From Sulfurihydrogenibium sp. YO3AOP1 (GTDB taxonomy: Bacteria > Aquificota > Aquificia > Aquificales > Hydrogenothermaceae): 64,000 bases of DNA. Below the pieces are notes generated by a model. That model made no database searches. It was not told where the DNA came from and saw only the letters and a list, made by a program, of their open reading frames with translations. Below are positions 12,985 through 61,775 of this stretch, one piece after another. The DNA lies in assembly GCF_000020325.1 (NCBI RefSeq), contig NC_010730.1, positions 1,261,501 through 1,325,500 of the forward strand, read 5' to 3'. Numbering within the stretch: position 1 is the first letter of the stretch; the number at the start of each line of letters is the position of its first letter. Both the position numbers and the translations under genes were made by a program.

Positions 12985-13131
12985 TAGAAACTGCTTGCAA
13001 AATCAACATTATCATTCTGTAGCCGGCAAAGAATCTCTTTTTTACCTCCTCTTACTTTCAAATAACAATAAAAGAGGAGATCCTTCGGCCTTCGGCCTTC
13101 GGCCTCAGGATGACGAAAACATTAATGATGT
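12985..13131. repeat. Dispersed repeat module flanking IS110 copy 1
   Basis: Contains ATCATTCTGTAGCCGGC, AAGAATCTC, a short spacer, and then GAGGAGATCCTTCGG...CCTCAGGATGACG. These are the two inverted ends of the dispersed module. CCTTCGG is repeated three times in tandem at 13081-13104. The sequence then runs into GATGTCATC, where the insertion element starts. Confidence 0.7.
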
Positions 13132-13210
13132 CATCGTATATTAAATATACTAAAAATTTTTTAAACTATAAGAGAATAAGTTTTATAATAATTATAGACA
13201 TGGGAGAAAA

Positions 13211-13357
13211 AAAGAAGGACAGATCAAGTTTCTGTCATTGGTCTTTTAAGACCGATCAGGATGTTTTAGACTGTCCTTCCTCTACTTCCTAAAACCTGAA
13301 TCAGAACATTAGGCTTTTAAGCCTGTATTTAACTACGATGATAGGTTATCAGGAAGT
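13211..13357 (+). ncRNA. Putative bridge RNA of IS110 copy 1
   Basis: Two looped stems can be drawn. Stem 1 pairs GAAGGACAG (13214-13222) with CTGTCCTTC (13271-13279) around an inner hairpin GGTCTTTTAAGACC. Its loop carries TGTCATT (13233-13239) and CAGGATG (13257-13263), which correspond to the left and right sides of the target TGTCATCCTGA. Stem 2 pairs ACTTCCT (13284-13290) with AGGAAGT (13351-13357) around AGGCTTTTAAGCCT. Its loop carries AGAACAT (13303-13309), identical to the element's right end, and TACGATG (13334-13340), the complement of its left end. This is the architecture described for IS110 bridge RNAs. Transcript ends are not known. Confidence 0.8.
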
Positions 13358-13396
13358 TTCTTTCATGTCAAGTATTTTATGAAAGGAGGTACTATT

Positions 13397-14383
13397 ATGA
13401 ACAGCTACAAAATTGTTATAGGAGTTGATGTATCTAAAAACTCATTCACTGCTACAGTTTTGTATGATAACAAGAAAGAAACTTTTGAAGTTAAATCTGA
13501 CCCAGTTGAGTTTGAAATGAAAGTAAAGCCTTACCTTAAGAAGTTTAAAAAGTCAGATATGCTTATCATAATGGAGCATACGGGAGTTTACCATTTAAAG
13601 CTTGCTAATTATCTGTATGAAAATGACTATAAAGTAGCAGTAGTAAATCCATTTTCAATAAAGAAATTTATGGAAGCTAAAATGACAAGAGTTAAAACAG
13701 ATAAAGCTGATTCATTCTTTATAGCAGAGTATGGAAGAACGTTTTTCGATGGAGAGCTTTATAAACCAAAATCAGATGTAGAAAAAGAAATAGAAGTAAA
13801 ACTAAAGATATTGGAAGACTTACAACAGCAGCTTACAATGCTAAGAAACAAAAGAGAATCATTAAGTCATGTACCAATGAAAAAATTGAAAGAGAATTTA
13901 GAATATTACGATGAGCTAATTAGAAAAATAGAAAAAAACATAAAAGAACTTGAGAAAGAGATAAAAGAATTGTCTAAGAAGAATTATCAAGAGGAATACA
14001 AACTTTTAAAAAGCATACCTGGTATAAGTGATAGGACTATAGGAATGATAATATCAGTATATGGAAATTTTGAAAGATTTAAGAGTGTAAAAGATATATC
14101 GAGTTTTATAGGAATTAATCCAAGCCCATATGAAAGTGCAGCATGTGTAAAGAAAAGTGGCTGGATAAAAAAGATGGGAAATCCATATGCAAGGAAAATA
14201 TTATACATGGCAGCATTATCAGCAATAAGGTTTAACAAATACTGCAGAGAATTATACGAAAGATTAGTAAGTAAAGGTAAGGCTAAAAAGTTAGCATTAG
14301 TAGCTGTAGCACATAAGTTATTAAGGCAGGCATATGGTGTATTAAAGAATAAAAGACCATTTGATGAAAATTTTTGTACTTGA
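13397..14383 (+). CDS. IS110-family transposase (DEDD recombinase), copy 1
   Basis: A 328-residue recombinase. The N-terminal RuvC-like domain starts IVIGVDVSKNSFTA and continues with MEHTGVYH and KTDKADS. A coiled-coil region lies at about residues 130-195. The C-terminal Transposase_20 domain begins LLKSIPGISDRTIGMIIS and ends KMGNPYARKILY. The start was chosen behind AAAGGAGGT; an ATG 18 bases upstream overlaps that site. Compared with copy 2, the stretch around the predicted catalytic serine reads NPSPYESAAC instead of SPGIHESGTS. Serine is kept but the neighbouring Gly is lost, so activity is uncertain. Confidence 0.93.
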   Translation: MNSYKIVIGVDVSKNSFTATVLYDNKKETFEVKSDPVEFEMKVKPYLKKFKKSDMLIIMEHTGVYHLKLANYLYENDYKVAVVNPFSIKKFMEAKMTRVKTDKADSFFIAEYGRTFFDGELYKPKSDVEKEIEVKLKILEDLQQQLTMLRNKRESLSHVPMKKLKENLEYYDELIRKIEKNIKELEKEIKELSKKNYQEEYKLLKSIPGISDRTIGMIISVYGNFERFKSVKDISSFIGINPSPYESAACVKKSGWIKKMGNPYARKILYMAALSAIRFNKYCRELYERLVSKGKAKKLALVAVAHKLLRQAYGVLKNKRPFDENFCT

Positions 14384-14397
14384 CATTTAACATAGAA

Positions 14398-14592
14398 CAT
14401 CCTGAGCGTCAGCGAAGAATCTCATTTTTTAAATCAAAAAATCAAAAGAGGAGATCCTTTGGACTTATGTCCTTAGGATAACGAACAAAAGTAAGCTCAT
14501 TTTACGCATACATTATACAACTTGCAAGAATTTTAGAACATCCCTACTCCTTAAAGACTTTAAAATAAATCTAAGTCAATAAGAAGATAGAA
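14398..14592. repeat. Dispersed repeat module on the right side of IS110 copy 1
   Basis: Directly at the element end lies CATCCTGAGCGTCAGCGAAG, then AATCTC, a spacer, and GAGGAGATCCTTTGGACTTA. This is a module with inverted ends. From 14488 a second repeat type follows, with CATACATTATACAACTTGCA and AATTTTAGAACATCCC; it is also seen at 59733-59782 and, inverted, at 36131-36169. Confidence 0.65.
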
Positions 14593-61277: not shown

Positions 61278-61382
61278 CTTGGAGGTTTTCTCAAGCCCGC
61301 TTCCCTACGGCAGCATTACCTGCATCAGGTTCTAAGGGTATATTCTCAGGCTGTCTTTTTAAGACAACCACCCCCGCGGCTT
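61278..61382 (-). promoter_or_regulatory. TPP riboswitch with anti-Shine-Dalgarno platform
   Basis: The minus strand carries the THI-box landmarks in order: GCGGGGGTG, CTGAGAATATACCC, GAACCTGATGCAGGTAATGC and CGTAGGGAAGCGGGCTT, with AAGCC...GGCTT closing the base stem. Just downstream, CCTCCAAG (61285-61278) is the exact complement of the thiC ribosome site CTTGGAGG (61245-61238), 32 bases away. Binding of TPP would therefore favour hiding the ribosome site, which is control at translation. No terminator hairpin with a T run is seen. Confidence 0.94.
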
Positions 61383-61775
61383 ATTGCAACTTAATATATA
61401 ATATATATTCAATCATTTCAATAGCTTTTGTATGCAAAACATCATAAATGTAAAGTAAAAAGTAACAAAGATAAGATAAATGTTAACCATACCTCACGAA
61501 GCTTGAGCTACGAATCTACTAAATTTTTCATTGTTTAATGATTTAATATTGGTTGAGAAATTCAATAAAAGTAGGGGATTCTTCCCACGGCTGCAGAATG
61601 ACAAATGAGCTTATTCTTTTTCTGATGCTTATCATTCAACCTTTCGCTATCATTCTGAGGGCTTTAGTCCGAAGAATCTCCTCTTTTGATTTTTTGATTT
61701 GAAAAGAAAAACAGGAGATTCTTCGCTGACGCTCAGAATGACGATGTTGATTTTTGGAACATCCTTTTGTCCTTC
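61383..61775. repeat. Repeat-filled gap
   Basis: The thiC promoter must lie in 61383-61440, but I see no clear boxes. A full module spans about 61648-61742, from ATCATTCTGAGGGCTTTAGT through GGAGATTCTTCGCTGACGCT to CAGAATGACG, with the tail TTGATTTTTGGAACATCC. A partial piece with GGCTGCAGAATGACA lies at about 61588. No gene is supported. Confidence 0.66.

What the first reader, a model, noticed from the sequence alone, without database searches (positions are those of the whole stretch)
13132..14401. IS110 copy 1 carries a readable bridge RNA: donor guides match the element's own two ends
Seen directly: in the leader before the transposase gene, a looped stem (ACTTCCT/AGGAAGT around AGGCTTTTAAGCCT) holds AGAACAT, identical to the right end (14394-14400). 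It also holds TACGATG, the exact complement of CATCGTA at the left end (13132-13138). Established: IS110-family elements such as IS621 use a bridge RNA whose donor loop pairs with both ends of the circular element. Inference: this element uses the same mechanism in a thermophile.
Basis: partly seen in the sequence, partly recalled or inferred. Interest (0 to 1): 0.85.

Follow-up and report, generated by a model that had tools for sequence, protein, structure and literature searches.

The report
Bridge-RNA jumping gene in hot-spring bacterium
This is a mobile DNA element of a known kind (IS110) from a heat-loving bacterium, whose own small guide RNA can be read letter by letter: one loop matches the element's two ends and the other matches the short repeat into which every copy in the genome has inserted.

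Summary
The element is an IS110-group insertion sequence; its recombinase is related to IS621/ISCro4 and keeps the catalytic residues. The 265-nt leader folds into two loops. The donor loop holds AGAACAT (right end) and TACGATG (complement of the left end), as reported. All 26 left and 26 right junctions in this genome fit GTCAT(C/T)CT, a dispersed palindromic repeat with about 360 intact sites; a sister species keeps the empty site of window copy 2. The joined ends form TTGACA-N17-TATATT in the IS621 register, placing the core at AT. Handshake bases pair with the opposite DNA as IS621 predicts, possibly over 4-6 nt rather than 2. Target guides are the most variable part of the leader; donor guides are fixed. 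Insertion flavour follows each species' dominant guide beyond site availability, but copy-by-copy matching within this genome is not significant. New member of a known kind; RNA production and activity are untested.

The parts
13126..13132 (+). left target half (LT, positions 1-7: TGATGTC) flanking the left end
   Evidence: GT precedes CAT in all 26 left junctions of the genome, TGT in 21 of 26
13133..13134 (+). left copy of the predicted AT core
   Evidence: CAT shared by donor and target; AT sits at spacer positions 14-15 of the junction promoter like the CT core of IS621
13135..13139 (+). right donor (RD) CGTAT at the left end
13137..13142 (+). -10 box TATATT of the circle-junction promoter
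   Evidence: TTGACA-N17-TATATT on the joined ends
   Evidence: fold -23.7 kcal/mol, z = -3.4
13230..13238 (+). left target guide TTCTGTCAT; bases 13230-13232 vary between copies
   Evidence: TGTCAT identical to the target top strand; variation
13256..13262 (+). right target guide TCAGGAT, complement of ATCCTGA (target positions 8-14)
13263..13268 (+). handshake guide of the target loop, GTTTTA: pairs with donor TAGAAC (one G-U), not with target
13284..13357 (+). donor-binding loop (stem ACTTCCT/AGGAAGT, inner hairpin 13311-13324)
   Evidence: fold -20.3 kcal/mol, z = -3.0
13303..13309 (+). left donor guide AGAACAT, identical to the right end
13334..13339 (+). right donor guide TACGAT, complement of ATCGTA at the left end
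13340..13343 (+). handshake guide of the donor loop, GATA: pairs with target TGTC (one G-U), not with donor
13397..14383 (+). IS110 recombinase, 328 aa (DEDD RuvC-like + Transposase_20), ribosome site AAAGGAGG upstream
   Evidence: Pfam PF01548 2.7e-22, PF02371 9.1e-22; PDB IS621 8wt6 3e-35
14380..14385 (+). -35 box TTGACA of the circle-junction promoter (overlaps the stop codon)
14392..14398 (+). left donor (LD) ATAGAAC at the right end
14399..14400 (+). right copy of the predicted AT core
   Evidence: as for the left core
14401..14424 (+). right target half and the rest of the host palindromic repeat (CCTGAGCGTCAGCGAAGAATCTC)
   Evidence: CAT(C/T)CT in 26 of 26 right junctions of the genome
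44308..45578 (-). second full copy in the window, variant guides GTTTGTCAT / CTGTAGAATG; its empty site is present in S. yellowstonense

Best explanation
This is an IS110-group insertion sequence that moves by bridge-RNA-guided recombination. Shown by sequence: the leader encodes a two-loop RNA whose donor loop matches the element's own right and left ends, and whose target loop matches the dispersed palindromic repeat GTCAT(C/T)CTGA into which every copy is inserted. Inferred: the recombinase excises a circle; joining the right end to the left end creates a TTGACA-N17-TATATT promoter that transcribes the bridge RNA and the recombinase; the RNA-protein complex brings the donor junction ATAGAAC-AT-CGTAT to NNNTGTC-AT-YCTGA; top strands are exchanged at the AT core, helped by handshake bases (GUUUUA to donor, GAUA to target), giving scarless insertion.
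For: Homology to IS621/ISCro4 recombinases and conserved catalytic residues. All four guides present in order, 0 of 20,000 shuffles. 26/26 left and 26/26 right junctions in this genome, one orientation, at the repeat named by the target loop. Empty site of window copy 2 in S. yellowstonense. Two-loop fold z = -4.4, conserved in three genomes. The IS621 leader read the same way as a control gives the same anatomy and promoter register. Handshake bases match the non-cognate and not the cognate DNA at the discriminating position 6 in both loops. Insertion flavour C:T is 19:7, 9:2 and 1:8 in three species whose main guides are GGATG, GGATG and GAATG, against near-equal site availability.
Against: No RNA-seq and no recombination data. 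Stems hardly vary in the genus, so covariation is uninformative, and no Rfam model covers the RNA. Within this genome guide type does not predict the resident target copy by copy (Fisher p = 0.60; all genomes p = 0.087), and copies with the CTGTAGAATG guide sit in repeats it matches poorly. LTG positions 1-3 match their own flank only slightly above chance (p = 0.045). Five of 26 left junctions lack TGT.
Confidence: 0.95

Rival explanations
1. The element is an IS110 insertion sequence, but the matches are passive: the leader loops are a protein-binding or translational-control structure, and target choice is by protein recognition of the repeat.
For: A hairpin CTTTCAT/ATGAAAG reaches the ribosome site. 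Guide variants do not predict resident targets within this genome.
Against: All four guides in IS621 order and register, 0 of 20,000 shuffles. Handshake cross-match. Leader variation concentrated in target guides (7 of 17 guide positions against 12 of 248 others, p = 4e-5) and absent from donor guides. Recombinase homologous to enzymes shown to need the RNA (PMC11208160).
Confidence: 0.03
2. The system is a decayed relic: the sequence features are inherited from an active ancestor but these copies no longer move.
For: About 14 copies are broken, and 3 of 12 full copies have a stop in the gene.
Against: Nine full copies have an open recombinase gene, two are 99.8% identical at different sites, and a sister species has the empty site of copy 2, so movement happened after the species split.
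Confidence: 0.15

Closest known systems
IS621 (IS110 group, Escherichia coli; bridge RNA, PMC11208160 and PMC11208158)
   Same: Recombinase domains and catalytic residues; leader-encoded RNA with target loop before donor loop; order and strand of the four guides; promoter across the joined ends with the core at spacer positions 14-15; target is a dispersed palindromic repeat.
   Different: AT core instead of CT; right target guide of 7 nt (positions 8-14) instead of 4; guide and donor sequences unrelated; handshake complementarity may run 6 and 4 nt instead of about 2; host is a thermophile with an AT-rich genome.
ISCro4 recombinase (PDB 9t56)
   Same: Homologous over residues 7-324.
   Different: Sequence only about as close as IS621; its RNA was not compared here.
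IS1111 group (seekRNA, PMC11187229)
   Same: DEDD recombinase and RNA-guided target choice.
   Different: IS1111 elements carry the non-coding region downstream of the gene and have longer subterminal inverted repeats; here it is upstream.

Membership tests
IS110 group insertion sequence | Recombinase with DEDD RuvC-like domain (PF01548) and Transposase_20 domain (PF02371) | tested here: met
   79.7 and 77.7 bits, above cut-offs
IS110 group insertion sequence | Long left non-coding end and short right end (reverse of IS1111) | tested here: met
   265 nt before the gene, 18 bp after it
IS110 group insertion sequence | Catalytic residues D11, E60, D102, D105, S241 of IS621 | tested here: met
   D11, E60, D102, D105 at the same numbers; the YES serine aligned
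IS110 group insertion sequence | Scarless insertion at a specific short site with a shared core | tested here: met
   26/26 junctions per side; empty site
Bridge-RNA system (IS621 type) | Two-loop RNA in the left end, target loop first | tested here: met
   predicted fold only:
Bridge-RNA system (IS621 type) | Donor guides match the element's own ends | tested here: met
Bridge-RNA system (IS621 type) | Target guides match the genomic insertion site | tested here: met
   for the consensus site; copy-by-copy association not significant
Bridge-RNA system (IS621 type) | Guides covary with donor ends and targets across homologues | tested here: inconclusive
   donor invariant in the genus; species-level target shift in the expected direction
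Bridge-RNA system (IS621 type) | Handshake bases pair with the non-cognate DNA | tested here: met
   sequence only
Bridge-RNA system (IS621 type) | Promoter reconstituted across the joined ends in the circle | tested here: met
   TTGACA-N17-TATATT; sequence only
Bridge-RNA system (IS621 type) | CT core dinucleotide (T nearly invariant, AT tolerated) | tested here: met
   AT core predicted by register; IS621 also recombines AT cores (PMC11208158)
Bridge-RNA system (IS621 type) | RNA expressed, bound by the recombinase and required for recombination | not testable with these tools
   needs RNA-seq and in vitro recombination

The most novel reading that the evidence does not exclude
In this lineage the 3' arm of each loop is complementary across the recombinant junction and not only to its own DNA half. 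The target-loop arm TCAGGATGTTTTA complements TAGAACATCCTGA (13 nt, one G-U); the donor-loop arm TACGATGATA complements TGTCATCGTA (10 nt, one G-U). This would be a handshake two to three times longer than in IS621, which might stabilise strand exchange at high temperature or help the RNA bind integrated junctions for excision. In addition, copies within one genome carry several target-guide alleles that mirror the alleles of the host repeat.
Probability: 0.3. Interest if true: 0.55.

Novelty: new member of a known kind. Interest (0 to 1): 0.4.

Why it matters
It is a complete, readable bridge-RNA system from a thermophile, with natural 7-nt right-target pairing and natural handshake matches, both of which improved IS621 when engineered (PMC11208158). 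A heat-stable bridge recombinase would be a practical tool. Dozens of insertions in three sister species, with several target-guide alleles and hundreds of intact landing sites of two flavours, form a natural experiment on how guides and targets evolve together.

Tried and rejected
Structure covariation within the genus: stems nearly invariant, so no test. Rfam: no bridge-RNA model hit; the one weak hit (mir-59, E = 0.05) is far below its cut-off. More distant Aquificota elements (24-38% identity) have other layouts; in the many-copy element of G122 I could read only one donor guide and could not place the core, so it was left out. Viral contigs: no relatives. A RAYT as source of the repeats: the only Y1 transposase in the genome has no such repeat near it. 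Copy-by-copy guide/target association in this genome: not significant.

Full report
What is there. The window is 1261501-1325500 of a closed 1,838,442-bp genome. The nearest named relatives of the element are in Sulfurihydrogenibium yellowstonense SS-5, which matches genome G103, listed as the same genus; the host is therefore a member of the Aquificales, and 'thermophile' rests on that. The strain name is not given. The element spans 13132-14401. Its gene (13397-14383, 328 aa) has both IS110 Pfam domains. Its best solved relatives are the IS621 (E = 3e-35) and ISCro4 recombinases, and D11, E60, D102 and D105 fall at the IS621 numbers.

Observation. The ordered donor-guide pair did not occur in 20,000 dinucleotide shuffles of the leader. 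The two-loop segment folds with z = -4.4.

The stem AAGGACAG/CTGTCCTT (13215-13278) is the target-binding loop. Its guides TTCTGTCAT and TCAGGAT(G) read out TGTCAT and ATCCTGA. The genome holds 12 full-length copies and about 14 broken ones. All 26 left junctions read GT|CAT (21 of them TGT|CAT) and all 26 right junctions CAT(C/T)CT, in one orientation relative to the repeat. GTCATCCTGA and GTCATTCTGA each occur 180 times in this genome, and the window has 7 of them against 0.19 expected. S. yellowstonense carries the uninterrupted site of window copy 2, aligned through the join. For copy 1 the sister locus also lacks the element, but the local repeats differ.

Register. IS621 sites are 14 nt with the core at 8-9; LTG pairs with 1-9, RTG with 8-11, extendable to 14 (PMC11208158). 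Joining the ends here gives TTGACA-N17-TATATT with AT at spacer positions 14-15. IS621, fetched as a control, has TTGCAG-N17-TATTAT with its CT core at the same positions (my reading). The core is therefore taken as AT, which IS621 tolerates. Donor = ATAGAAC-AT-CGTAT; target = NNNTGTC-AT-YCTGA. The integrated copy also has an internal promoter-like site at 13160-13189, so the RNA might be made without excision.

Handshake. In IS621 the two bases after the core-pairing base of each 3' arm pair with the other DNA molecule, and pairing with the cognate DNA blocks exchange. Here the target arm continues GUUUUA, which pairs with donor positions 7-2 without interruption (one G-U) and fails on the target at position 6. 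The donor arm continues GAUA, which pairs with target positions 7-4 (one G-U) and fails on the donor at position 6. Shuffling the downstream bases gives 0.4% for the six-base and 6% for the four-base run. The two-base handshake is as expected for the family. The longer run is suggestive only: it was noticed after the fact, part of it may be used in stems, and most S. yellowstonense copies keep only four of the six pairs (sequences).

Guide variation. Among the 12 full copies, 7 of 17 target-guide positions vary against 12 of 248 other leader positions (Fisher p = 4e-5); the matching donor-guide bases do not vary. Guide alleles mirror repeat alleles: TCAGGATG (CATCCTGA), CTCAGAATG (CATTCTGAG), CTGTAGAATG (CATTCTACAG; CATTCTRCAG occurs 79 times in this genome). 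Across species, insertion flavour follows the dominant guide beyond site availability: C:T 19:7 here (availability 180:180, p = 0.03), 9:2 in G101 (100:148, p = 0.01), 1:8 in S. yellowstonense (142:135, p = 0.02). These counts were tallied by hand, copies are not fully independent, and three species are few events. Copy by copy the association is weak (p = 0.087 overall, 0.60 in this genome; LTG positions 1-3, p = 0.045). Copies with the CTGTAGAATG guide sit in repeats that fit it poorly, so if guiding holds, insertion in trans by another copy's RNA, later guide change, or tolerance of mismatches must be common.

Verdict. This is an IS110-group element with an IS621-type bridge RNA: a new member of a known kind, with a longer right target guide and possibly a longer handshake. 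Targeting of dispersed palindromes and natural reprogramming of guides are already published for the family (PMC11208160; PMC11187229). Activity is not shown here.

Noticed in passing
L031:3199-4437 and similar places in L032, L033, L034, L038, L039, L044, L045, L047: About 11 IS110 copies are interrupted by one Mutator/IS256-type transposase element (PF00872) with ends GAGACTTGTCAATAATTTTGTGTCT, often with a deletion of variable length in the IS110 part.
   Followed up: partly
genomes G000, G101, G103 against G098, G099, G100, G102: The dispersed repeat GTCAT(C/T)CTGA has hundreds of copies in the three genus members that carry this IS110 element and 0-2 copies in four members without a close relative of it. 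Shared ancestry or a causal link is open.
   Followed up: no
L051 about 3011 and L058 about 2288 (S. yellowstonense right junctions): Two right junctions read CATCTGAG and CATCTGCAG, one T shorter than the expected CATTCTGAG and CATTCTGCAG, as if recombination slipped by one base at the core.
   Followed up: no
L001 and L034 left flanks: Two IS110 copies share an identical 30-nt left flank but have different right flanks, which suggests homologous recombination between copies.
   Followed up: no
L114 (G122), about 1057-2408: A distant IS110-type element with 16 matches in another Aquificota genome inserts at an AGGAGG ribosome-site-like sequence; its joined ends also appear to form TTGACA-N17-TATAAA.
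   Followed up: partly
window 61284-61385 (-): TPP riboswitch (Rfam RF00059, 67.9 bits).
   Followed up: no
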